64,000 nt of DNA from Planktothrix tepida PCC 9214 (lineage in GTDB: Bacteria; Cyanobacteriota; Cyanobacteriia; Cyanobacteriales; Microcoleaceae), in NCBI RefSeq assembly GCF_900009145.1, contig NZ_LN889803.1, forward strand, positions 27,072-91,071. Direction: 5' to 3'. The first letter of the stretch is position 1. Each line of letters opens with the position of its first letter. A program made the translations under genes and the position numbers. Below the pieces are notes generated by a model. That model was not told where the DNA came from, searched no databases, and saw only the letters and a list, made by a program, of their open reading frames with translations. Below are positions 1 to 10,899 of the stretch, in pieces.

Positions 1-1
1 G

Positions 2-31
2 GCTTTTACTGTTCAATGGTTAGCTACTTAA
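2..31 (+). CDS. C-terminal end of a LecA-like module protein (partial, enters from left edge)
   Basis: Only the last nine codons and a TAA stop are inside the window. They read AFTVQWLAT, identical to the last nine residues of the protein at 151-939, and the DNA differs at only one base over these codons (GCT against GCC). The gene is therefore almost certainly another member of the same modular lectin family, lying immediately upstream in the same orientation. Its N-terminal module cannot be seen. Confidence 0.75.
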   Translation, partial: AFTVQWLAT

Positions 32-150
32 GTTAATTCTCAAACATTAAAAGCGAAGAGTGAGGAAACCCAAAAAAGATTAGATTTCCCATTCTTCTGA
101 TTCCTAAAACGCATTTTTCACTTAATTCAGAATACAAGGAGAAGCAGCAA

Positions 151-939
151 ATGGTTGTTGAATTGCAATTCCGCACACTATTAAATGGTCAAACTTTTGG
201 AACCGGAACCTTTAGTTATAACGGACAATATGCACCGGGTACTATTCTACATCAAGGAGATTTAATTTCCTTTACTTATCAGGATGAAATTGTTGGATCA
301 TTTGACTTAAGCCACTTAGCAAATTTTGATTTTGTCTATCAAAGCGTTGACACAATTTGCGCTTTTAATATTATTGTCGCATCTGGGGATCGGACGCGAT
401 CGCTAACGGCTGGCCCCGCCCAACCTCACCTGACCCGACCCGGAACATCGGCCGATGTCGCTAAACCCCGTTCTCAAGTCGTAGAATTAGAATGGCCGAC
501 TCCCAAAACTCCCGCCCCAACTCCCGCCCCAACTCCCGCCCCAACTCCAATTCCCACACCCCCACCCGCTCCACTATTCGGTCAATTTGAAGTGCTGAGT
601 ACCTCAGAAATTGGTTATAACTTCACAAATACTTATGGTCGGGATCTGACTGTTTTCTTTACCCCGTCAGGAGAATGGAAACCTGCCTATTTCCTCCCCT
701 ACTATACCCCCGCAGGTGCACCTGGTTTTCCCTATCAAGAATATATGGTTTATCCCCAAAATACTTCCTTTGCGCTGTTAGCCATTGACTTAGAAACCAA
801 TACGGTTTTAGCCGAAATTACCGGGACAACTCAATTAGTCATTAAAGCCGGACAAACAATTGCTTTCCGCATCAATGATGTGGTGGGTTGTTATGCGGAT
901 AATTATGGGGCTTTTACTGTTCAATGGTTAGCCACTTAG
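151..939 (+). CDS. Modular protein: unknown N-terminal domain, Pro/Thr linker, C-terminal LecA (PA-IL)-like domain
   Basis: The protein has 262 residues. Residues about 1-115 form a beta-rich domain I do not recognise. Residues about 117-140 are a linker of Pro-Ala-Pro-Thr repeats. Residues about 143-262 look like the galactose-binding lectin LecA/PA-IL of Pseudomonas: the end reads FRINDVVGCYADNYG, matching the LecA calcium/sugar loop (N-D-V-P-G-T-Y-G-N-N), with the calcium-ligand Asp and the last Asn kept. There is no signal peptide, which is also true of LecA. An AAGGAG Shine-Dalgarno lies about 8 bases before the ATG. It belongs to a tandem family with 2-31, 1728, 2725 and 3941. Calcium-dependent glycan binding is inferred; the function of the N-terminal domain is unknown. 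Confidence 0.75.
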   Translation: MVVELQFRTLLNGQTFGTGTFSYNGQYAPGTILHQGDLISFTYQDEIVGSFDLSHLANFDFVYQSVDTICAFNIIVASGDRTRSLTAGPAQPHLTRPGTSADVAKPRSQVVELEWPTPKTPAPTPAPTPAPTPIPTPPPAPLFGQFEVLSTSEIGYNFTNTYGRDLTVFFTPSGEWKPAYFLPYYTPAGAPGFPYQEYMVYPQNTSFALLAIDLETNTVLAEITGTTQLVIKAGQTIAFRINDVVGCYADNYGAFTVQWLAT

Positions 940-1032
940 GTCAACCCTAATCTAGTTTTTGCACTCTTTCATCTTGTGAAGAAAAAGAAAACTAGAGCGA
1001 GGGGATTAAAGTCCAATTTCACAGGAGATTAA

Positions 1033-1375
1033 ATGGCAACACTTTAAAAGAATAATTCCTAATTGATAACGGTTAGTAGGCTCTAGTACAATTCTGTATT
1101 AACAAGAGTTATTTTCTTGATAAAGCAGGATAAAATTGTTCTGGAATTTAATTAAAATTCGTAACAATTATTGATTATTTCTCTTAAAGTGTTGGCAACA
1201 TTTTCGGCTTTATTTAATATAATGAGAAAATCTACTCATCCGATGCGAGCGCTCACCATTAGAACAGTAGAATGTCCCCCTTTTAAAGCAAGCCCATCTA
1301 CAAGTTCCACTCAACCCTGTTCTGGAACTGTGGAATTAGAATAGTCAACTCAGAAATTCCCCCATTATTCACACC
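1033..1375 (+). pseudogene. Decayed copy of the N-terminal part of the 151-939 gene
   Basis: An ATG behind a good Shine-Dalgarno (CAGGAGATTAA) starts a frame that stops after four codons, yet the following DNA can be aligned by eye with 151-500. TTGATAACGG matches TTATAACGG, GTACAATTCTGTATTAACAAG matches GTACTATTCTACATCAAGG, CAGGATAAAATTGTT matches CAGGATGAAATTGTT, and GTGGAATTAGAATAGTCAACTC matches GTAGAATTAGAATGGCCGACTC. Many stops and small indels show that it is dead. The similarity ends at the Pro/Thr linker; no LecA module follows. It is an old tandem duplicate. Confidence 0.75.
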
Positions 1376-1727
1376 AAAACAACAGAATATATCTTAAAAA
1401 TAGATCTTTTGTTTTGCTATATATGCAGAAAAAATTTCAATTGAATTGAAATCAATATGAAATCCCATGATGAAGGCTACGGATAATCCCCCCCAACCCC
1501 CCTTAAAAAGTAGGGAGATGTGTAGCATACATTTAAGGATTTCATATAAGGTGATTTCTACTGAATTAAAAAATCTGTATAAACCGTTGAACTCTGCCTC
1601 AATGAAGTTGTGGTTGATTACTCCGAGAGATGGAGTTTAGCGACGATTAAATAGGAAAGCGCATTCAATTCAATTGTAAGTCTTCGTTCCAGTCTATCCC
1701 TTCATCAATTATCAGGAGTAAAAATCG
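1376..1727. other. Intergenic DNA, no gene seen
   Basis: AT-rich stretch between the decayed paralogue and the pentapeptide-repeat gene. It contains a C-rich tract followed by TTAAAAAG (about 1490-1512), a type of intergenic sequence common in filamentous cyanobacteria. No reading frame or structured RNA was recognised. The last bases (CAGGAG) are the ribosome-binding site of the next gene. Confidence 0.5.
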
Positions 1728-2627
1728 ATGTCTGATGCTCAACAATGGCCTTTCCCATTACCCAATACAAAAGATTTAGTCAGTTTGTTGAATTGGCTGT
1801 ATCTTCAAGGAAAACGGGATTTTCCCTATAGCTATCTGTATGAAGCCAATCTAACCAATGCCAAACTCCCCTCAGTCAATCTTAGCTTTTCCTATTTGTA
1901 CAAAGCGAATTTGTTAGGCGTTGACTTGATGGCAGCTAACTTAGGTTATAGCTTTTTTGCCTATAGCTACTTAGGCTATGCCAATCTCACCTATGCCTAT
2001 TTAGGGTATGCCTATTTAGCTTATTCTAACCTCAGTCATGCCAATTTAAGTTTTGCCAATTTGAGTCATTCTGATTTAAGCTTTGCAGATTTAAGTTATG
2101 CAGATTTAACCAATGCAGATTTAAGTTATGCGGATTTAAGTTTTGTGAATCTGACGGGCGCGAATCTCACCAATACCAAATTGACGGGTGTAACCATTAT
2201 GGGAATTACACTCACCAATATTCAATTGGTTAACACCTATTTTGCCCAAACCCAAGTCATTGCGAGTGGCAAATTTGAAGTTCCAGCTAACTCGGAAGAT
2301 GGCGTCGCATTAATGAATAATAGTAACCGTGATGCCTCCGTTAATATCACGCCATCAGGTTCGTGGAAAAACGGGCCAAATACAGCATCTTTCTCATCGG
2401 CAGGAGATGCTTCTTATGCAAAAGCTGGAATGAAACATCCTCAAAATACAGCTTTTTCGCTATTAGCCATTAATCCCATCACAAATATAGTCCAAGAAAT
2501 TTATACCCCAACAGTCATTGCGATTAAACCGGGCGAATCATTAATTTTCAGAATGAATGATGCCCCTGGAGCTTACGGTAATAACGTTGGCAGTATAACT
2601 GTTAATTGGTCAGAAGTTGGTCGCTAA
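1728..2627 (+). CDS. Pentapeptide-repeat protein with C-terminal LecA-like domain
   Basis: The protein has 299 residues. After about 30 N-terminal residues, residues about 38-172 are pentapeptide repeats of the A(N/D)LxX type (for example YANLT, FADLS, YADLT, GANLT), which fold as a right-handed quadrilateral beta-helix. An unusual run of Tyr/Phe at the repeat positions (YAYLGYAYLAYSNLS) would give the helix an aromatic face. Residues about 180-299 are a LecA-like module ending FRMNDAPGAYGNNVG, the family copy closest to the LecA loop, with both Asn kept. CAGGAG lies 8 bases before the ATG. No signal peptide. Probably a glycan-binding protein with a solenoid spacer or scaffold; this role is inferred. 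Confidence 0.8.
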   Translation: MSDAQQWPFPLPNTKDLVSLLNWLYLQGKRDFPYSYLYEANLTNAKLPSVNLSFSYLYKANLLGVDLMAANLGYSFFAYSYLGYANLTYAYLGYAYLAYSNLSHANLSFANLSHSDLSFADLSYADLTNADLSYADLSFVNLTGANLTNTKLTGVTIMGITLTNIQLVNTYFAQTQVIASGKFEVPANSEDGVALMNNSNRDASVNITPSGSWKNGPNTASFSSAGDASYAKAGMKHPQNTAFSLLAINPITNIVQEIYTPTVIAIKPGESLIFRMNDAPGAYGNNVGSITVNWSEVGR

Positions 2628-2724
2628 TTCAGGCATTATTCAATGGGGGAAATTAGCATTAATTTGTTATTTTCCCCTTGAACAAGGGTAAGTCAGTCTA
2701 ACTTATCGAAAAGGAATTGAAGAT

Positions 2725-3804
2725 ATGACAACCAGTAATTCTCAAACCTCTCTCTTGTGCTTTGATGGTGTTGATGACTGTGTAGAAATTTTACATCAAA
2801 ACAAATTGAATCCTCTCAATTTCACAGTTGAGGCTTGGGTTTTAAATTTGAATACGGCTCAAACAGATTTCTGTATTCTCTCTTCCAATGTCTCTCGGTG
2901 GCCTTATATATATGAGTTTATTCAATACACCAAAGACAATCGCTTACTGTTTGCCCTTTTTAATGGTGCTGGTTATGCCGAGGGACGTTCTATGCCCAAC
3001 AATGTTTGGACTCATCTTGCAGGAACTTACGATCAAGCTTCTCAGATTTGTGTTTATTATATGAATGGTAAGCAGGTATGTAATAAATCTATTACTAATA
3101 GAACCAGACCTTCTAGTACCACTGATGAGATTTTGTACATTGGAACACACTTAGTTAATACGAGTTCCCAGCCTCGGGGACGTTTTTTCAAAGGATACAT
3201 TGACGAAGTTCGCATCTGGAATATCGTTCGTACTGAACAACAAATTCAAGAAAGCTTTAATAAACCATTAACAGGGAAAGAACCCAATTTAGTCGGATAT
3301 TGGCGCTTGAGTAATCTTTCTGGGAATAAAGTTCCTGATTTAACTGGGAATGGTTTAGATGGAATTATTTATGGGAATGCTACCTCTCAATTAATTGATC
3401 ACTCCCCATTTACCACTCCGCAGCCAGAGAAAACAAAAACTTTTGATGTTGATATCAACTCAACCTCTGGTACTCCCTTTAAAAATGATTTTCAACAGGA
3501 AGTTAGCTTCAAAATCTCTGCTACAGGAACCTGGAAACCAGCTACTTGGGCTGACTGTACACCTGCCGGATGGCCCGGTTTTGAATATCAAAGTCAAATG
3601 AAATATCCAAACAATACTTCCTTTGCTTTGTTAGTTGTTGATGCTGACACTAACACGGTTTTAGCCGAATTAGGAAGCGAAATTACTTTAGTTTTAAAAC
3701 CCAGTCAAACGATTACCTTTGTCGTCAATGACGTTCCTGTCAATGATGGCTATCAAGATAATACAGGACATCTCAGCATCACTTCTGTTGCACAGATTCC
3801 TTGA
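2725..3804 (+). CDS. LamG jelly-roll protein with C-terminal LecA-like domain
   Basis: The protein has 359 residues. Residues about 5-220 are a concanavalin-A-like LamG domain: FTVEAWV, NVWTHLAGTYD, GYIDEVRIWNIVRTEQQIQ and LVGYWRL are typical of the LamG_3 family. Residues about 237-359 are the LecA-like module, with the Asp loop VNDVPVNDGYQDNTG (three residues longer than in LecA). The start has AAGGAATTGA upstream. It is a paralogue of 3941-5047: the two LecA modules share a stretch of about 60 identical bases (3569-3630 against 4802-4863), while the LamG halves are more diverged. No signal peptide or membrane segment. Two potential carbohydrate-binding folds in one chain suggest an adhesin or agglutinin; the ligand is unknown. 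Confidence 0.8.
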   Translation: MTTSNSQTSLLCFDGVDDCVEILHQNKLNPLNFTVEAWVLNLNTAQTDFCILSSNVSRWPYIYEFIQYTKDNRLLFALFNGAGYAEGRSMPNNVWTHLAGTYDQASQICVYYMNGKQVCNKSITNRTRPSSTTDEILYIGTHLVNTSSQPRGRFFKGYIDEVRIWNIVRTEQQIQESFNKPLTGKEPNLVGYWRLSNLSGNKVPDLTGNGLDGIIYGNATSQLIDHSPFTTPQPEKTKTFDVDINSTSGTPFKNDFQQEVSFKISATGTWKPATWADCTPAGWPGFEYQSQMKYPNNTSFALLVVDADTNTVLAELGSEITLVLKPSQTITFVVNDVPVNDGYQDNTGHLSITSVAQIP

Positions 3805-3940
3805 AATAGCAATCGGTAAAATTAGATAGGGTTTGGTTCTTGGAGCTAGTTAAATTTTAGCTTTTACCCAACTCTTATCTCGGTCTATTGTTGCCTGTGT
3901 TAACTCAATTGAACTTAATCTCGTTGGAGTTTATATTATT

Positions 3941-5047
3941 ATGATCACTCACAATCCCAAAAGTCCTCTATTTCGATTTGATGGCAATAAAGACTATGCA
4001 GATATTCCCTTTAAAAACGAATTAACCCCACCTAATTTAACCGTTGAACTTTGGGTTTTACAAATAGAAAAGTATAAATATTCGGCGGCGACCCTTCCCC
4101 TCATCAGCACGACCGAACAACAAGAGTTAGGATATACCCTTGGGGAATATAATGCAGCCACAGGCTTACAGATGATCTTTCAAGTCGATACTTTGACCGA
4201 GCGTTATCCACTGTTTGTAAAAACCCCTTTACCCCTCAATGTTTGGACACATTTTGCAGGGACGTATGACCAGAAATCCCAAATTTCCTGTTTCTATATC
4301 AATGGCGAACTCCTGCAAACTTATAATTTCGCAAACACGCACTATAATCCACTTAAACCCCAGACCCCTGCAACTTCTAATATATTGCGACTGGGAGCGC
4401 TAGTCAAAAAGTCAAAAGATGGGAAAAATCTTGTATTTTGTGAATTCAATGGATATATGGATGAAGTTCGCATTTGGGATGTCGTTCGTACTCAACAGCA
4501 AATTCAGGAAACCATCAATCAAGAATTAACCGGAAAAGAACCTAATTTAGTGGGATATTGGCGGTTTAGTAATCTTTCCGATAATAAAGTTCCTGATTTA
4601 ACCGGGAAAGGTTTAGATGGGATAATTATTAAGAATGACAATCCTGTCACGCCTATACCCAAAACCCAAACTTTTGAGGCTGACCTCTGCTCACAAGCGG
4701 GAGTGAACTTTACTAATACTTTTGCTCAGGAAGTTTCATTCAAAATTTCTGCGTCTGGAACCTGGAAACCCGCGAGTTGGGGTGAGTTAACCCCCGGAGG
4801 CTGGCCCGGTTTTGAATATCAAAGTCAAATGAAATATCCAAACAATACTTCCTTTGCTTTGTTAGTCGTTGATGTTGAAACTAAAACGGTTTTAGGTGAA
4901 TTAGGAAGCGAAATTACTTTAGTCTTAAAACCCAGTCAAACGATTACCTTTGTCGTCAATGACGTTCCTATTTCTGAGGGCTATACTGATGGCTATAAAG
5001 ATAATACGGGAAATATCAGCATCACTTGTACTGCACTCATTCCCTAA
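3941..5047 (+). CDS. LamG jelly-roll protein with C-terminal LecA-like domain (paralogue of 2725-3804)
   Basis: The protein has 368 residues and the same architecture as its upstream neighbour. LamG spans residues about 5-228 (LTVELWVL, NVWTHFAGTYDQ, GYMDEVRIWDVVRTQQQIQ, LVGYWRF). The LecA-like module spans about 240-368, with a longer loop, VNDVPISEGYTDGYKDNTG. Last of the tandem run: the next gene is convergent. The LamG domain carries insertions relative to the paralogue (after WVLQIEK and after LRLGALVKK). Lack of a signal peptide means export, if any, would need a leaderless route. Confidence 0.8.
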   Translation: MITHNPKSPLFRFDGNKDYADIPFKNELTPPNLTVELWVLQIEKYKYSAATLPLISTTEQQELGYTLGEYNAATGLQMIFQVDTLTERYPLFVKTPLPLNVWTHFAGTYDQKSQISCFYINGELLQTYNFANTHYNPLKPQTPATSNILRLGALVKKSKDGKNLVFCEFNGYMDEVRIWDVVRTQQQIQETINQELTGKEPNLVGYWRFSNLSDNKVPDLTGKGLDGIIIKNDNPVTPIPKTQTFEADLCSQAGVNFTNTFAQEVSFKISASGTWKPASWGELTPGGWPGFEYQSQMKYPNNTSFALLVVDVETKTVLGELGSEITLVLKPSQTITFVVNDVPISEGYTDGYKDNTGNISITCTALIP

Positions 5048-5116: not shown

Positions 5117-5671
5117 CTATTTCAGAGAAACTCGCAGCACATCTTCTGGTATATTTTCAATTAAATAACCGTAGGCAGGATGTTGTTGTTCTAGGGTAGC
5201 AGGAATAGGAGAAACAGAGGTAAGCAACCAAATTTCATCAAACTTGTTCCATAAATCTTGTAACTCTGGATGAATGGCACTATCTGCAAAAAGATTCATC
5301 ACAACTCCATAAATTGCCGTTAAATCTGATAACGTTCCTTGAACATAAATTTGCCCCCGAACAACGGCAGCATCTAACGATAACTTCCCCTGAATAATCG
5401 CCCTTAAGGTTTCAGCATCACTGCGAAAATCGTACTGTAGGGGCGAGGCTCCTTCCCCCCTCCTAATGGGTTCAATTTCAACTTGTAATGGTTCACCCCC
5501 ATGGGCCTGCAATTGTAAAGGAATGCCATCAAGTTCAATGAGGGCGGATTTGTCTGAAACCGCTAGAACAAAGTGATCCCAAGTTGACCCTCCCTGAGTG
5601 CGAATTTGGCAGACTAATTCCTCTAACCATTCCTTTAATTGTTGCTGACGTTCTCTCACAAAATCAACCAT
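5117..5671 (-). CDS. SCP2-like (sterol-carrier-fold) protein
   Basis: The protein has 184 residues and is hydrophilic. The middle (residues about 78-128: FRSDAETLRAIIQGKLSLDAAVVRGQI, then GTLSDLTAIYGVVMNLF) has the pattern of SCP2/lipid-carrier domains: a helix 'LrdIlqGkls...A...G.i.v.G' followed by the hydrophobic lid helix. The N-terminal 35 residues look coiled. It is divergent from the polyprenyl synthase at 5798, with 126 bp between starts, so the two could share a promoter region. A role in binding or presenting a lipid made by the neighbouring genes is inferred from context only. Confidence 0.55.
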   Translation of the reverse strand: MVDFVRERQQQLKEWLEELVCQIRTQGGSTWDHFVLAVSDKSALIELDGIPLQLQAHGGEPLQVEIEPIRRGEGASPLQYDFRSDAETLRAIIQGKLSLDAAVVRGQIYVQGTLSDLTAIYGVVMNLFADSAIHPELQDLWNKFDEIWLLTSVSPIPATLEQQHPAYGYLIENIPEDVLRVSLK

Positions 5672-5797: not shown

Positions 5798-6895
5798 ATG
5801 TTTGATAAAACAATTATTAATGAAGCCTTACAAAATTCCCGTTCTGCTATTGTCAGTAAAATTCAAGAGTTTGTCAATAGCAAACGTCAAGGTACAGGTG
5901 CTTATGAGCCTTTATATGATTTATTAACCGACTATCCCTTTCGAGTGGGAAAAATGCTCAGGCCCACAATTTGTATTAGTGTCGCTCGTGCCGTTGGAGG
6001 AATAGGACAATCTGCCTTAGCAACGGCTGCCGCCTTAGAACTTTATCATAATGCTTTTTTGATTCATGATGATATTGAAGATGGCTCAGAATCTCGACGG
6101 GGAAAAGAAACCTTACATTCTCGAATTGGAATTCCTCGTGCGATTAATGTTGGAGATGCGACTAATGTTTTAGCGGTGGGTTTATTATTAGAAAATTTAT
6201 CATCTTTGGGAGTTACAAAAACCTTAAATATTCTCCATGAAATTGAAGTGATGGCACAACAATCCGTTGAAGGACAGGCAATGGAGTTAGATTGGGTAGC
6301 TGATAATACTTCCAATCTAACAGATCAAGATTATTTTACCATGTGCGTTAAAAAAACCTGTTGGTATTCCTTCATGACCCCTTGCCGGATTGGGTTTATT
6401 GTCGGAAATCCTAATGCTAACGCCAGTGCATTAGTCAAACCTTTAGCCGATTTAACTCGATTTGGAATGCTACTAGGAATTGCTTTTCAAATTCAAGATG
6501 ATCTGTTAAATTTAATTGGAGAAATGGAAGCTTATGGAAAAGAAATTGGGGGAGATATTTATGAGGGAAAACGAACAGTGATGTTAAATCATGTTATTAG
6601 TCATAGTAATCCCGGAGAATCCAAAGAAATTCTTAAAATATTAGCAACTCCCAGAGAAGATAAAACTTCCGATCAAATTGAATTTATTTTGAAATTAATG
6701 CAAAAGTATGGCAGTATAGATCATGGTTGGTGTTTAGCTCGTTCTTATGCAAAACAATCCGCAGAACTATTTGAAACCTTGGATTTTCTTGAGGCTGAAA
6801 CCCCCTTACGTTCAGAGGAAAAATTTATTTCCGAATATCATGACCGACGATTTTTAAAAGAATTGATTAATTATGTAATTTATCGCAATTTATAA
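5798..6895 (+). CDS. trans-polyprenyl diphosphate synthase
   Basis: The protein has 365 residues. It condenses isopentenyl diphosphate with allylic diphosphates. The first Asp-rich motif is HDDIEDGSESRRG (DDxxD intact, about residue 89). The second is QIQDDLLN, where the usual last Asp is Asn. GKMLRPTI is the region-I Lys-Arg motif, and GGDIYEGKRTVML resembles the 'EGKrT.mL.H' type rather than the 'GKTAGKD' motif usual in cyanobacterial CrtE. It is also about 60 residues longer than CrtE, with a C-terminal extension. This suggests a specialised paralogue rather than the housekeeping geranylgeranyl synthase. It starts a rightward run with 6922 and 8505 (26-bp gap, then a 4-bp overlap). Chain length cannot be read reliably by eye. 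Confidence 0.85.
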   Translation: MFDKTIINEALQNSRSAIVSKIQEFVNSKRQGTGAYEPLYDLLTDYPFRVGKMLRPTICISVARAVGGIGQSALATAAALELYHNAFLIHDDIEDGSESRRGKETLHSRIGIPRAINVGDATNVLAVGLLLENLSSLGVTKTLNILHEIEVMAQQSVEGQAMELDWVADNTSNLTDQDYFTMCVKKTCWYSFMTPCRIGFIVGNPNANASALVKPLADLTRFGMLLGIAFQIQDDLLNLIGEMEAYGKEIGGDIYEGKRTVMLNHVISHSNPGESKEILKILATPREDKTSDQIEFILKLMQKYGSIDHGWCLARSYAKQSAELFETLDFLEAETPLRSEEKFISEYHDRRFLKELINYVIYRNL

Positions 6896-6921
6896 TTCCC
6901 TAAAAATAGGATATTATCATA

Positions 6922-8508
6922 ATGAATTTAGATTTAAAACCCACTTCCGATTTCCCGATTTTAATTGAAGGTCAACCTGGATTAACCGTAATTCTGAAGT
7001 TATCCTGTTGTAATGAGCGCTCAGAAAATTTATTAATTCGTCCAATTTTAGAAGATGGATTCACCGATAGCCAACAAGTTGTATCCTGTCATTATCAAGT
7101 CAATCCAGCCTATCTTTACTTATTGCCAAAAAAAGCGGAAAATCTAATTTTAACCTTCCAAATTCCTAAAACTATTTCTGATCAAAATTCGGTGAAAATC
7201 GGGTTAAGATTTCCAGGGATAGAAGCAGAAGCGATTCCAATTCTAATCACTTTGGTATCCCCTCAACCTAGTTCTGAAACCCTATCGCCAGCTAACTCAA
7301 TTGAAAAGTCTCTCAAAGTGACCTTTCCTTTTTCTGATCAAAATCTTCTACCCTCAACTCATCTTTCCCCTCAAAAAACAAGTATAATAGGGAAATTTAC
7401 ATCAAGATTAACCGATTTAGATACAATCCCTTCTCGTTGGTTAATCGTTGAAATCTTAACCCTTTTAGCAATCATTGGAGATGATTATTCTCAAACAAAA
7501 CAAGGAAATAAAACCCTTCAAGACCTTGAAAAAACAGTCTTTTTTCAACAAGGTGCAACAGCATTTAATTCGGGAGGTATTCCTCAATGGATACTCATCA
7601 CTTTATCTACAATTAAAACCTATTTAGGTCAAAAATTGGTATTAGAACTTTGGGAACAGTGGTTATACAGTTTAGGAGCAACCGATTTAGAACATGAAAA
7701 AAATCCAGAAACTATTTTAATGTCTCCCCTGTTCCCTTCCCACTGGATTTCTCAACAAAATAACCAAACAGAACGCTGGTTTTCTAATATTATTTTAGGC
7801 TTAAAACAAATTAATCCGTCTTTTTCTGATCAATTAGAAACCTTGATTTCTCAAACCTCAAAATCGCCAAAAAAACCTGCGTTTGGGCTGGGTTTATTGC
7901 CGTTTATTAACCCGAAAAATAATCAGGAAACCCCCACGATTACACCGGAAAAAAATATCACTTTAATCACAGGATTATCAAGTTTTGATACCTTACCTGC
8001 TCGTTGGCTGGTTGTAGAATTGCTTTTGATAATCGCTGCTCAAGGAAATCAGTATTCAACGGAAAAACTGGGGATAGAATTGAGTTCTAAATTGCAACGT
8101 ACCCGATTTTTCAAAAATGGGATTCTGGCTTTAGCTTCTGCACAATTTCCCCGGTGGTTAATCGTCACCCATCAAGCCACATCAGCCTTTCATACTGATA
8201 CCGGAGGAACCTTAGAAACCCAAGGATTAGTTTATTTTTGGGAAAAATGGTTATGGAGTTTAAATTCTCAGCCATTGCCTAATCTTGTGAATTATCATAC
8301 CTTAACAGAAACCTTAATTCAAAAAAATGGCATGGATGTTGAAAAATGGTTCCTTGATCTGATTCTAGGATTGGGTTTAATCTCACCTAGAATTTCAGCA
8401 TTTATTCAGACTTTAGCCGAGATAGTGCCTATTATTTCCCCAAAACCAGCAATCATTAAAACCTCGCCAGAAGATATTGTTAATTCTAATCTATCTTTAC
8501 AACGATGA
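6922..8508 (+). CDS. Unrecognised protein with a duplicated domain
   Basis: The protein has 528 residues and no family I recognise. Residues about 1-112 look like a beta-sandwich (alternating hydrophobic strands). A domain of about 90 residues then occurs twice: about 163-253 (SRLTDLDTIPSRWLIVEIL, then LWEQWLYSLGA) and about 350-440 (TGLSSFDTLPARWLVVELL, then FWEKWLWSLNS). Both copies share the core (S/A)RWL(I/V)VE, a central FF/RF...F..G segment and a Trp-rich end. It lies between the polyprenyl synthase and a CrtC-like gene and overlaps the latter by 4 bp (ATGA), so the three are very likely co-translated. No catalytic motif and no signal peptide. AGGA lies 10 bases before the ATG. Confidence 0.7.
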   Translation: MNLDLKPTSDFPILIEGQPGLTVILKLSCCNERSENLLIRPILEDGFTDSQQVVSCHYQVNPAYLYLLPKKAENLILTFQIPKTISDQNSVKIGLRFPGIEAEAIPILITLVSPQPSSETLSPANSIEKSLKVTFPFSDQNLLPSTHLSPQKTSIIGKFTSRLTDLDTIPSRWLIVEILTLLAIIGDDYSQTKQGNKTLQDLEKTVFFQQGATAFNSGGIPQWILITLSTIKTYLGQKLVLELWEQWLYSLGATDLEHEKNPETILMSPLFPSHWISQQNNQTERWFSNIILGLKQINPSFSDQLETLISQTSKSPKKPAFGLGLLPFINPKNNQETPTITPEKNITLITGLSSFDTLPARWLVVELLLIIAAQGNQYSTEKLGIELSSKLQRTRFFKNGILALASAQFPRWLIVTHQATSAFHTDTGGTLETQGLVYFWEKWLWSLNSQPLPNLVNYHTLTETLIQKNGMDVEKWFLDLILGLGLISPRISAFIQTLAEIVPIISPKPAIIKTSPEDIVNSNLSLQR

Positions 8509-9572
8509 CTTTAGATCCTTCACTGATTAACCAGATTGAATCTTTACGGATTCCTTTAGATAATCCAGAATCTCCTTTAGATTGGAAAGATTGGTATCAT
8601 TATATTCTGATTCATCCTAAAACCGGGATGCGAATTTTAGTGAATATCACCCTTATGGGTAGACCCCAACGGGGAGAAATTCAAGTCAGTTTGATTATTA
8701 ATAGTCCCAATTCTTTATTACCCCCTTACCTACAAACAAAGGATTTAATAGCGACCTTCGCTACGGCTGTTGCTATTCCTTGGAAAGCTAATTATGTTGG
8801 TTCTCAACCCTTAGAAATTCAAGCAAAAGGAGTTCATTTACAAATTCAGGGAGAACAATCAAAAATTCAAGTTCAGGACAAGCGATCGCAACTTTATATT
8901 GAGTTTAAAACTCAAGTTAAAGCCACTCCTTTATTAGTGACTGAAGATGCTAAATTTGGTAATGGTTTTATCGGCTGGGGATTAATTCCTGGGTTAGAAG
9001 TTTTAGGCAAATTCGACATTGGTGAAACTCAATTTCACTTAAATTCTGATTGGTTGTGTTATCACGATCGCAATTTTGGGCGTTTTCGTTGGGGAGAAGA
9101 TATCGGTTGGGAATGGTTTGTAATTTTTGCCCAAACTGAAACTAAAATTCCCCTGACCCTAATCTTAGACTGGAGAACAAATAAAACCCATACTCAAGGC
9201 GGTTTACCCTATATTTTTATTTATCAAAATCATCAGTTAAGTAAAATCTTTTTAGGGGAAACATTACGCCTAAATTGGCAGTGGTCAACCGTTCCCTATC
9301 AACCTTTACGTTTACCCGGAGTTATGGCATCTTTATTTAGCGATCGCGTCTTAAAAATGCCGCAAAGTTTACAAATTGAAGCTGAAGATGAACAGGATCA
9401 TTTGTTGTTAAATCTTAACTTTGATGCTACCCTAGAACTGATTGTTCCTGATAATCAATCCCGTCAATATACTTTTATTGAAGAACTCTCAGGAACCGTT
9501 GAAACCCACCTAAAAATTAACGAAACCCAATTAATAGCTCAAGGATTTGTTTATGCTGAATATGTGCAGTAA
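8505..9572 (+). CDS. CrtC/AttH-like lipocalin-fold protein (possible carotenoid/terpenoid hydratase or cyclase)
   Basis: The protein has 355 residues. The segment LNSDWLCYHDRNFGRFRWG and then GWEWFVIFAQ resembles the core of the hydroxyneurosporene synthase (CrtC, carotenoid 1,2-hydratase) and AttH-like superfamily, which has two lipocalin-like beta-barrels; the C-terminal end GTVETHLKINETQLIAQGFVYAEYV fits its final strands. Members act on hydrophobic terpenoids by hydration or cyclisation. The start overlaps the stop of 6922-8508 by four bases. Next to a polyprenyl synthase and facing a glycosyltransferase, it is a candidate tailoring enzyme of a terpenoid pathway. Family assignment is moderate; the reaction is unknown. 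Confidence 0.6.
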   Translation: MTLDPSLINQIESLRIPLDNPESPLDWKDWYHYILIHPKTGMRILVNITLMGRPQRGEIQVSLIINSPNSLLPPYLQTKDLIATFATAVAIPWKANYVGSQPLEIQAKGVHLQIQGEQSKIQVQDKRSQLYIEFKTQVKATPLLVTEDAKFGNGFIGWGLIPGLEVLGKFDIGETQFHLNSDWLCYHDRNFGRFRWGEDIGWEWFVIFAQTETKIPLTLILDWRTNKTHTQGGLPYIFIYQNHQLSKIFLGETLRLNWQWSTVPYQPLRLPGVMASLFSDRVLKMPQSLQIEAEDEQDHLLLNLNFDATLELIVPDNQSRQYTFIEELSGTVETHLKINETQLIAQGFVYAEYVQ

Positions 9573-9579
9573 ACAGGTT

Positions 9580-10899
9580 TCAGGTTTCAGGTTTTCTGGT
9601 CATCAGATAAGTTTCCAGGACATCAACGGCTTTGCAGTTTCCCTGTTCAGTTTGGATATAGCTGCTGACTTCAGCCACACGGGTAGCATAACTTGGATCA
9701 CCTAATAACACTTTCAGTTCTGCTAAAACCGTAGACGCTTGATAAAGATGGCGGTCTAATGTTCGCCCAACCCCCATTTGTACAACTCGTGTTGCATTGT
9801 CGGGTTGATCATAATGATAAGGAATGACTAACATCGGATGCCCGGCTCGTAAGGCTTCCGCCGTTGTTCCCATACCCCCATGATGGACAATAGCCGCGGC
9901 GAATGGAAAAATATCGGCATGGGGTGAGTAGTCAATGGCGATGACTCCTGGGGGTAAACCCAAGGCGTTCAATTGGTGTGCCGCTTTTCCCATCATCAAA
10001 ACAGCCCGATATCCTAACTTTTGGGCTGCTATCATCCCCTGTTCATAAAAATTCCCTGGAGTTAAAACAGCCGTTGACCCCAAGGTAAATACAATCGGAG
10101 GTGGCCCAGCGTGCAAAAACTGTTGGAGTTCTGGGGATAACCCCGACTCAGAATTTTGACGGTAAAAGGGAAAACCCGTAATCTGGGTTTGTGGGGGCCA
10201 ATCAGGTTGGACACTGGCAAAGGTTTGGGAAAATAAACCCAACACCAGAGGTGCAAATTGTCCTTCGAACAAAGGATCAAATCTGGCTTCTAACCCTAAT
10301 TCTTCTTGTAATTGTTCCAAAGGCGCACTCCAAAGTTGCATATTGCAGCGAAACAGACGCAGCAAAGAATCCCTAGCCACTACCGCCATTGCTTTTTCAT
10401 AGCGAGATTGAGTGCTTTTTTCCGGGGGGACATCATAGGCAGACATCAAAACACTGGGAGATAAAATTGTAGAAACCCAGGGAATTCCTGTTTTTTCAGC
10501 AACTAAAGAGGCGACTAATGTTAAGGGATGGGTTAAGAGTAAATCTGCTCCTTGTACTGCATTAATTAAGTCAGAATAACTGGTGCGTAAATAGGGCATT
10601 AATAAATAATTGATAATGTATTCCATCCCCCGTTGGGAGTCCATCATCATCGATAAAAATTCTATCTCTCCGGGTTCTTGGGGCAAACCATTGGGTCTGA
10701 GGAGACAAAACTCTATTCCGGCTGTTTCAATGGTTTTTTGATATTGTTCACAGGTAGCAATGCGGGCGGAATACCCTCGATTTTGCAATTCTTGAGCCAG
10801 TGCCATATAGGGATATAAATCTCCTAAAGACCCAAAGGTTGCTAAAACAATTGTTTTTCCTGAACCGTTGGAAGTTTGATGTTTTAATCGTCTGTCCAT
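9580..10899 (-). CDS. GT1-family (UGT/sterol-glucosyltransferase-like) glycosyltransferase
   Basis: The protein has 439 residues. The N-terminal half opens with IVLATFGSLGDLYPYMALAQ, as in MGT/sterol 3-beta-glucosyltransferases, with the GDL(Y/H)P turn and acceptor-side His/Asp region. The C-terminal donor half contains PPIVFTLGSTAV and the signature AAIVHHGGMGTTAEALRAG followed by VIPYHYDQPDNA, the UDP-sugar site. Such enzymes glycosylate lipophilic acceptors, for example carotenoids (CrtX), sterols and macrolides. It ends 7 bp from the end of the CrtC-like gene and is convergent to it, so a shared pathway is plausible but not proven. No membrane segments. Confidence 0.85.
   Translation of the reverse strand: MDRRLKHQTSNGSGKTIVLATFGSLGDLYPYMALAQELQNRGYSARIATCEQYQKTIETAGIEFCLLRPNGLPQEPGEIEFLSMMMDSQRGMEYIINYLLMPYLRTSYSDLINAVQGADLLLTHPLTLVASLVAEKTGIPWVSTILSPSVLMSAYDVPPEKSTQSRYEKAMAVVARDSLLRLFRCNMQLWSAPLEQLQEELGLEARFDPLFEGQFAPLVLGLFSQTFASVQPDWPPQTQITGFPFYRQNSESGLSPELQQFLHAGPPPIVFTLGSTAVLTPGNFYEQGMIAAQKLGYRAVLMMGKAAHQLNALGLPPGVIAIDYSPHADIFPFAAAIVHHGGMGTTAEALRAGHPMLVIPYHYDQPDNATRVVQMGVGRTLDRHLYQASTVLAELKVLLGDPSYATRVAEVSSYIQTEQGNCKAVDVLETYLMTRKPET

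What the first reader, a model, noticed from the sequence alone, without database searches (positions are those of the whole stretch)
2..5047. Tandem family of modular proteins sharing a LecA (PA-IL)-like module
At least four co-directional genes and one decayed copy end in the same module of about 120 residues, whose C-terminus (NDxxGxYxxNxG) matches the calcium/galactose loop of Pseudomonas LecA. The N-terminal halves are entirely different: an unknown domain with Pro/Thr linker, a pentapeptide beta-helix with an aromatic face, and LamG jelly rolls. This looks like a locus that builds new glycan-binding proteins by swapping front modules onto one lectin base. None has a signal peptide.
Basis: partly seen in the sequence, partly recalled or inferred. 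Interest (0 to 1): 0.75.

Follow-up and report, generated by a model that had tools for sequence, protein, structure and literature searches.

The report
Modular LecA-like lectin gene cluster
A filamentous cyanobacterium carries a row of genes that join different front domains to the same sugar-lectin-like end domain, and in relatives two of these end domains have been copied onto each other, which looks like a natural way of mixing and matching binding proteins.

Summary
The core holds. Four co-directional genes (151-939, 1728-2627, 2725-3804, 3941-5047) end in one module of about 122 residues with a LecA/PA-IL fold: Pfam PA-IL passes its cut-off in gene 2, a family profile finds LecA in the PDB (E 2.2e-5), and the gene 1 model matches LecA best (Foldseek E 1.1e-5). 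Side-chain calcium ligands are kept in 4 of 4 copies; LecA's His50 in 0 of 4, so galactose binding is not implied.

Correction: the "decayed copy" at 2-31 is the tail of a fifth gene cut by an assembly gap; it is intact in two Planktothrix relatives. A truly decayed front lies at about 1108-1362.

New: in both relatives the modules of genes 0 and 1 are homogenised (dS 0.036 and 0.095 within, 0.39-0.49 between genomes) although their fronts are unrelated; the copied tract runs from the Pro/Thr linker to 5 nt past the stop. The gene 1 front is a mobile domain, elsewhere joined to vWA-like and DUF4114 regions. The cluster is deleted in G009, whose flanks nearly match G001's. Binding and function are untested.

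The parts
1..31 (+). 3' end of gene 0 (LamG + Pro/Thr linker + LecA-like module in relatives); its front lies left of the window at L004:9280-9999, cut by an assembly gap (one N)
151..939 (+). gene 1: front domain of unknown fold (about 151-495), Pro/Thr linker (about 496-570), LecA-like module (571-936)
874..909 (+). calcium loop of gene 1, N-D...D-N motif (residues 242-253); side-chain calcium ligands of LecA kept (Asp, Asp for Asn107, Asn)
1108..1362 (+). decayed copy of the gene 1 front domain, with in-frame stops; also present in G002
   Evidence: tblastn E 0.031 in the window, 0.002 in G002; six short stretches searched
1728..2627 (+). gene 2: pentapeptide repeats (25 repeats from residue 35, about 1830-2204; aromatic at position 5 in 14 of 25) and LecA-like module (2256-2624)
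2725..3804 (+). gene 3: LamG front (about 2767-3249) and LecA-like module (3424-3801) with a 2-residue longer calcium loop
3941..5047 (+). gene 4: LamG front (about 3980-4507) and LecA-like module (4652-5044) with a 6-residue longer calcium loop
5117..5671 (-). 184-aa gene of unknown function next to the cluster; in the genus found in 4 of 10 genomes, the same four that hold cluster members (in G004 in two pieces); lost with the cluster in G009

Best explanation
This is a tandem family of leaderless two-domain proteins. Each carries a C-terminal LecA/PA-IL-fold module with an intact set of side-chain calcium ligands (shown by sequence, and by a model for gene 1), joined, in genes 0 and 1 through a Pro/Thr linker, to a front domain of another kind: LamG, pentapeptide repeats, or a new mobile domain. 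I infer that the module binds a sugar diol through calcium and pairs or tetramerises as LecA and PllA do, so that each protein is a two-ended cross-linker: the shared end grips one glycan, the front end a second partner, outside the cell after release without a signal peptide, as for LecA (recalled). Galactose specificity is not assumed. In both relatives with an intact gene 0, the modules of genes 0 and 1 are kept alike by gene conversion or repeated replacement over a tract that begins in the linker and ends 5 nt after the stop (shown by comparison; not testable in the window genome because of the gap). The calcium loops of genes 3 and 4 are longer by 2 and 6 residues, which points to altered ligand preference (inference). 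The cluster is labile: copies decay, lose one domain, or are deleted whole.
For: Fold: Pfam PA-IL E 1.9e-5, above cut-off, for gene 2; 17-row family profile against the PDB, LecA E 2.2e-5, the first five of eight hits all PA-IL family; AlphaFold model of gene 1, module pLDDT about 91, best PDB match LecA 4cp9_A E 1.1e-5, probability 1.00, TM by target 0.75, ranks 1-11 all LecA, PllA or EclA-N. Calcium site: Asp100, Asp/Asn107 and Asn108 in 17 of 17 aligned modules; an Asp, Asp, Asn set binds calcium in EclA-N (PMC11875179, passages). Exchange: gene 0 and 1 modules 97% identical within G002 and within G001, 83-86% between them; dS 0.095 and 0.036 within, 0.39-0.49 between; trees holding gene 0 modules or gene 1 modules together by position rejected (p-AU 1.6e-93 and 2.7e-55); gene 0 fronts form one clade among the LamG fronts; tract 8269-8682/9246-9659 in G002 and 8282-8724/9217-9662 in G001. 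Constraint: dN/dS 0.10-0.30 in 12 of 15 ortholog comparisons of modules or fronts. Cross-linker model: EclA, a LecA domain fused to a second lectin domain (PMC11875179).
Against: No binding data. LecA His50 is Phe or Tyr in 4 of 4 window copies; Gln53 aligns with Gln in 3 of 4 only (alignment; loop region, uncertain). Genes 3 and 4 have no Pfam PA-IL match and gene 1 is below the cut-off. Only gene 1's module was modelled. In the best tree the two G001 modules were not one clade, though that grouping is not rejected (p-AU 0.107; FastTree support 0.353). The three remaining ortholog dN/dS values are 0.00, 0.33 and 0.49, and the pair of modules within G001 has 0.90 on few changes. Secretion route and oligomer state untested. 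In G001 the pentapeptide gene has no module, and in G009 the cluster is gone, so it is not essential.
Confidence: 0.5

Rival explanations
1. The LecA-like module is only an oligomerising, calcium-stabilised base; all ligand binding is done by the fronts, which are thereby made multivalent.
For: EclA keeps the calcium site but lacks the galactose contacts, and no specific ligand was identified for its LecA domain, though it may explain binding to some charged glycans (PMC11875179). Here His50 is kept in 0 of 4. One shared base with varied fronts fits this view as well.
Against: Asp100, Asp/Asn107 and Asn108 are kept in 17 of 17 aligned modules while the loop between them varies, which is easier to explain if the site binds something. 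Stand-alone copies (frames of 139 residues) exist in two other cyanobacteria, G291 and G418, where there is no front to present.
Confidence: 0.3
2. Ordinary birth-and-death of a small paralogous family by unequal crossing-over, without selection for variety; the cluster is a minor, dispensable locus on its way out in the genus.
For: Decayed front at 1108-1362; G002 gene 2 ends early and its gene 3 is reduced to a 45-codon tail; the G001 pentapeptide gene lacks the module; G009, 98.5 and 99.2% identical to G001 in the two longest flanking matches, has the cluster deleted; cluster members in 4 of 10 genus genomes.
Against: dN/dS 0.10-0.30 in 12 of 15 ortholog comparisons shows that intact copies are kept under constraint.
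Confidence: 0.3
3. The proteins act inside the cell as sensors of invading glycosylated molecules, in the way proposed for lectin-fold domains of bacterial conflict systems.
For: No hydrophobic N-terminus; lectin-fold domains in bacterial, also cyanobacterial, conflict systems are proposed in PMC8195603 (passages); the gene 1 front elsewhere sits on vWA-like regions.
Against: No defence family in the four genes and one vWA-like relative (PADLOC 0 of 5 proteins) and no effector or NTPase domain by Pfam; LecA itself lacks a signal peptide yet acts outside (recalled).
Confidence: 0.1

Closest known systems
LecA (PA-IL) of Pseudomonas aeruginosa, Pfam PF07828
   Same: Fold of the module and side-chain calcium ligands Asp100/Asn107(Asp)/Asn108; no signal peptide (for LecA recalled, here)
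   Different: LecA is a single domain of 121 residues; here the module sits C-terminal to another domain; His50 absent; calcium loop longer in genes 3 and 4
EclA of Enterobacter cloacae (LecA domain fused to a fucose-binding domain) and the neighbouring one-domain relatives in E. ludwigii (PMC11875179)
   Same: LecA domain fused to another domain, Asp/Asp/Asn calcium set, related genes side by side in E. ludwigii, partner domain there also found with a vWA domain
   Different: EclA has the LecA domain first, here it is last; fronts here are LamG, pentapeptide and a new domain; exchange of the module between genes is not reported in the parts I read
PllA of Photorhabdus luminescens
   Same: Fold and D..DN calcium motif
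   Different: Single domain, binds galactosides (PMC11875179)
Known cyanobacterial lectins (OAA, microvirin, cyanovirin)
   Same: Cyanobacterial sugar-binding proteins
   Different: Mannose specificity (PMC4390846, passages); other folds (recalled)

Membership tests
PA-IL/LecA family (PF07828) | Score above the Pfam gathering cut-off (22.5 bits) | tested here: inconclusive
   Gene 2 met (25.1); gene 1 not met (14.8); genes 3 and 4 no match at E 1. In 14 control genomes the family rings in 3 and passes the cut-off in 0. Profile of 17 relatives reaches LecA at E 2.2e-5
PA-IL/LecA family (PF07828) | LecA jelly-roll beta-sandwich fold | tested here: met
   Gene 1 module model, Foldseek ranks 1-11 all LecA/PllA/EclA-N. 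Genes 2-4 by sequence alignment only
PA-IL/LecA family (PF07828) | Side-chain calcium ligands Asp100, Asn107 (or Asp), Asn108 (roles recalled; EclA set from PMC11875179) | tested here: met
   4 of 4 window modules, 17 of 17 in alignment A3. Spacing lengthened by 2 (gene 3) and 6 residues (gene 4)
PA-IL/LecA family (PF07828) | Galactose contacts His50 and Gln53 (roles recalled) | tested here: inconclusive
   By the alignment His50 is Phe/Tyr in 4 of 4; Gln53 is Gln in 3 of 4 (not gene 2); loop alignment uncertain
PA-IL/LecA family (PF07828) | Calcium-dependent galactose binding, tetramer | not testable with these tools
   Needs protein
EclA-type LecA fusion lectins | LecA domain N-terminal, followed by the EclA-C domain | tested here: not met
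   Module is C-terminal in 4 of 4. Profile of the gene 1 front found no lectin in the PDB (one hit, E 1.3, a DNA-binding protein); whether EclA-C is in that PDB copy was not checked

The most novel reading that the evidence does not exclude
The Pro/Thr-linker DNA is a recombination seam: a cassette-like locus in which any front with a linker can receive the same lectin base, so that a cyanobacterium renews a set of two-ended, calcium-dependent cross-linkers by gene conversion at the linker. The gene 1 front, which elsewhere is joined to vWA-like and DUF4114 regions, would be part of the same trading pool.
Probability: 0.25. Interest if true: 0.7.

Novelty: new variant of a known kind. Interest (0 to 1): 0.52.

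Why it matters
[quoted passage not shown] A cyanobacterial cluster with three kinds of front on one LecA base, with the base exchanged between genes, offers a small natural system for asking how multi-domain lectins gain new partners, and a set of two-domain proteins in which calcium loop length varies. The cyanobacterial lectin survey I could look into did not search the PA-IL family (PMC10655256, passages: its Pfam list lacks PF07828; 0 occurrences of PA-IL or LecA in the main text).

Tried and rejected
Rejected: (1) 'Decayed gene at the left edge': explained by the assembly gap. (2) Chance resemblance to LecA: rejected by three tests. (3) Phage or plasmid origin: no relative of the module in the viral contigs (53 pattern matches, 0 relatives); tblastn of gene 2 on plasmids gave 88 records, none covering 80% of it, and the 15 listed lie within residues 13-190, the pentapeptide part (73 records not seen). 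Against this, PHROGs matched the LamG front of gene 3 (7 families, best E 1.5e-11, one a virion structural protein) and the linker region of gene 1 (E 8e-4); I take these as the wide spread of LamG and of Pro/Thr-rich sequence. (4) Defence system: PADLOC 0 of 5 proteins. (5) Front of gene 1 as a known fold: no Pfam family above cut-off, no NCBIfam, no PDB relative; the second model was poor (mean pLDDT 47.4), so I ran no fold search on it. NCBIfam matches of genes 2-4 were all below their cut-offs. (6) Promoters and terminators: 20 promoter-like sites against a mean of 19.1 in shuffles and 3 terminator-like against 6.1; uninformative.

Dropped rows: one search used 10 of 12 modules (W_g2 and B_g2 left out); one search's FastTree used all 12. 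Alignment A3 (17 rows) leaves out the partial module of G004, the 45-codon tail in G002 and the distant relatives L032, L033, L034, L038, L040 and L058; by eye the N-D...D-N motif is also in the G002 tail, L032, L033, L034, L038 and L040; L058 was not looked at. In one search the matches in four of the eight genomes (G382, G224, G328, G407) were set aside as chance: weak E-values and unrelated-looking frames (by eye).
Full report
Setting. The window is G000:C47:27072-91071 of a 6.78 Mb genome. G004, of the same genus, has a contig identical to DMPJ01000339.1, Planktothrix sp. UBA8402, so the organism is very likely a Planktothrix. Below, W is the window genome, B is G002, C is G001.

What is there. 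Genes at 151-939, 1728-2627, 2725-3804 and 3941-5047 end in a shared module of about 122 residues with 24 invariant columns among four copies. Pfam gives pentapeptide repeats plus PA-IL above its cut-off for gene 2, LamG for genes 3 and 4, and only a sub-threshold PA-IL match for gene 1. The pentapeptide part has 25 repeats with an aromatic residue at position 5 in 14 of 25. By hydropathy none of 13 proteins or fronts has a hydrophobic N-terminus or a strongly hydrophobic stretch (no signal-peptide predictor was available).

Left edge. The string at 2-31 is the end of a fifth gene. The base before the window is an N, the only N in the 20 kb of L004. To its left lies a LamG front (L004:9280-9999) 98% identical in protein to the front of B gene 0. 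B and C have this gene intact: LamG, Pro/Thr linker, module (390 and 380 aa). The part missing in W is the linker and module, which in B is nearly identical to gene 1's; a repeat collapsed in assembly is the simplest reason (inference). A decayed element is a copy of the gene 1 front at about 1108-1362, with stops; its counterpart in B matches better.

LecA fold. A profile of 17 cyanobacterial modules finds LecA (E 2.2e-5), its variant (2.3e-5), PllA (8.7e-4), EclA-N (0.061) and a further PA-IL lectin (0.081) as the first five of eight PDB hits; the other three are plastocyanins at E 0.34-0.47. The model of gene 1 has a module with pLDDT about 91 and a front below 50. Foldseek ranks 1-11 are LecA, PllA and EclA-N; E is 4.8e-3 at rank 12 with probability 0.57. 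I regard the fold as settled for gene 1 and very likely for the others, which share 40-46% identity with it.

Binding site. Asp100, Asp or Asn at 107, and Asn108 are present in 17 of 17 aligned modules. In EclA-N the calcium is held by the side chains of an Asp, Asp, Asn set (PMC11875179, passages), the same letters as in 15 of those 17 (the other two have Asn at 107). The profile alignment puts LecA's residues 50-53 (His-Pro-Asp-Gln) against Phe-Pro-Tyr-Gln in gene 1, Phe-Glu-Tyr-Gln in genes 3 and 4, and a gapped Tyr-Ala-Lys in gene 2, so His50 is kept in none of the four. The loop between Asp100 and position 107 is 2 residues longer in gene 3 and 6 longer in gene 4. I conclude: calcium binding likely, sugar binding plausible, galactose specificity not supported.

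Exchange of modules. Within B, gene 0 and gene 1 modules are 97% identical in DNA; within C, 97%; across B and C, 83-86%. W cannot be tested because of the gap. dS is 0.095 in B and 0.036 in C against 0.39-0.49 across; in B the paralogous pair (0.095) is closer than the orthologous gene 1 pair W-B (0.149), although the gene 1 fronts of W and B differ by only 0.063. Trees that keep gene 0 modules together (p-AU 1.6e-93) or gene 1 modules together (2.7e-55) are rejected; joining the two C modules is not in the best tree but is not rejected (0.107) (10 of 12 modules used). The gene 0 fronts of W, B, C form one clade (support 99/100) among the LamG fronts. The homologous tract starts in the linker and ends 5 nt after the stop in both B (8269-8682 / 9246-9659, 96.1% identical) and C (8282-8724 / 9217-9662, 93.5%). 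Gene conversion or repeated replacement of the linker-module block is the simplest reading. Of 15 ortholog comparisons of modules or fronts, 12 have dN/dS 0.10-0.30; the others are 0.00, 0.33 and 0.49; the paralog pair within C has 0.90 on few changes.

The new front. The gene 1 front (about 115 residues) has no Pfam family above cut-off, no NCBIfam and no PDB relative. Relatives were found in G087 and G098, each with two neighbouring genes in which it is followed by a linker and a region that looks like a vWA domain (for one of the two genes a weak Pfam VWA_4 match, E 0.035, below cut-off, for the other none; the DSSxSM motif reading is recalled), and in G625, where a 1725-residue open frame holds four copies, the first followed by DUF4114 (E 2.7e-21) and two by the vWA-like region. 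5 of 388 class genomes, the window's own included, match at E 0.001 or better, one of them (G612) weakly and with stops. It is therefore a mobile module in its own right. Its model was too poor for a fold search.

Distribution and loss. Own genome included, the module profile finds 8 of 59 relatives (E 0.01) and 8 of 386 phylum genomes (E 0.001); the wider profile finds 9 of 61 family genomes (E 0.001). In the genus it is 6 of 10, of which W, B, C and G004 hold cluster members and G006 and G008 only distant relatives (E about 2e-4). Other cyanobacterial forms include stand-alone copies (frames of 139 residues, L036, L037), a double module (L031; Pfam E 2.2e-13), copies behind a hydrophobic stretch (L032, L038, by eye) and a 539-residue frame (L040). 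In B, gene 2 ends early and gene 3 survives as a 45-codon tail; C's pentapeptide gene has no module and C has no counterpart of gene 4 in the cluster. G009, 98.5 and 99.2% identical to C in the two longest flanking matches, has a deletion from inside gene 0's LamG to inside the downstream prenyl synthase gene, leaving a 113-residue frame that begins as LamG. The 184-aa gene at 5117-5671 goes with it and is found in 4 of 10 genus genomes, the same four that hold cluster members.

How it probably works. The nearest studied protein, EclA, is a two-domain dimer whose halves face opposite ways, suggesting cross-linking of two partners; no specific ligand of its LecA half is known, though it may bind some charged glycans (PMC11875179, abstract, passages, sections 6 and 7). 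By analogy I propose that these Planktothrix proteins are two-ended cross-linkers of sheath, neighbour or attacker glycans. Microvirin of Microcystis binds the producer's LPS and was proposed to act in colony formation (PMC4390846, passages), and lectin-sugar recognition is discussed for a chytrid parasite of Planktothrix (PMC13391722, passages). Those links are inference.

Literature. Among the rows listed by six searches (20 of 169, 25 of 367, 10 of 56, 10 of 14, 10 of 12 and 7 of 7 papers) I saw no paper on PA-IL domains in cyanobacteria, going by titles and the starts of abstracts; the library holds open-licence papers only. The survey PMC10655256 lists the Pfam families it searched, without PF07828 (passages).

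Verdict. A real, modular LecA-like family with good evidence of exchange of its shared module; binding and role untested. New variant of a known kind.

Noticed in passing
window 1455-1547: A 93-bp stretch is 91% identical to a stretch at another place of the cluster in G002 (between genes 0 and 1, L028:8730-8821), as a small mobile repeat would be.
   Followed up: no
window 5798-9572: Downstream block: a polyprenyl synthetase (Pfam E 5.7e-57), a 528-aa protein and a 355-aa protein without Pfam families above cut-off; in the same order in G001 and G002, and cut into by the G009 deletion. The 355-aa protein is in 5 of 10 genus genomes.
   Followed up: partly
L030:9536-10513: G001 has a further LamG + LecA-like gene far from the cluster, next to a CHAT-domain gene (Pfam E 2.4e-26) on one side and a gene that reads like a sigma factor on the other (label by eye).
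   Followed up: partly
L084 / L078, L081-L083 (G625:C203): A 1725-residue open frame with four copies of the gene 1 front domain, vWA-like regions and DUF4114: a concatemer of what are separate genes elsewhere.
   Followed up: partly
L040:343-1959: A 539-residue frame begins with a LecA-like module and ends with three similar repeats of about 60 residues (by eye); no Pfam match.
   Followed up: no
L030:4308-6095: 595-aa protein without a Pfam match, largely helical by eye; unidentified.
   Followed up: no
L002 / G000:C64:7341-7466: A weak, sub-threshold PA-IL match (E 0.021, 17.2 bits) in a 532-residue frame elsewhere in the window genome, not found by the cluster's own profile.
   Followed up: no
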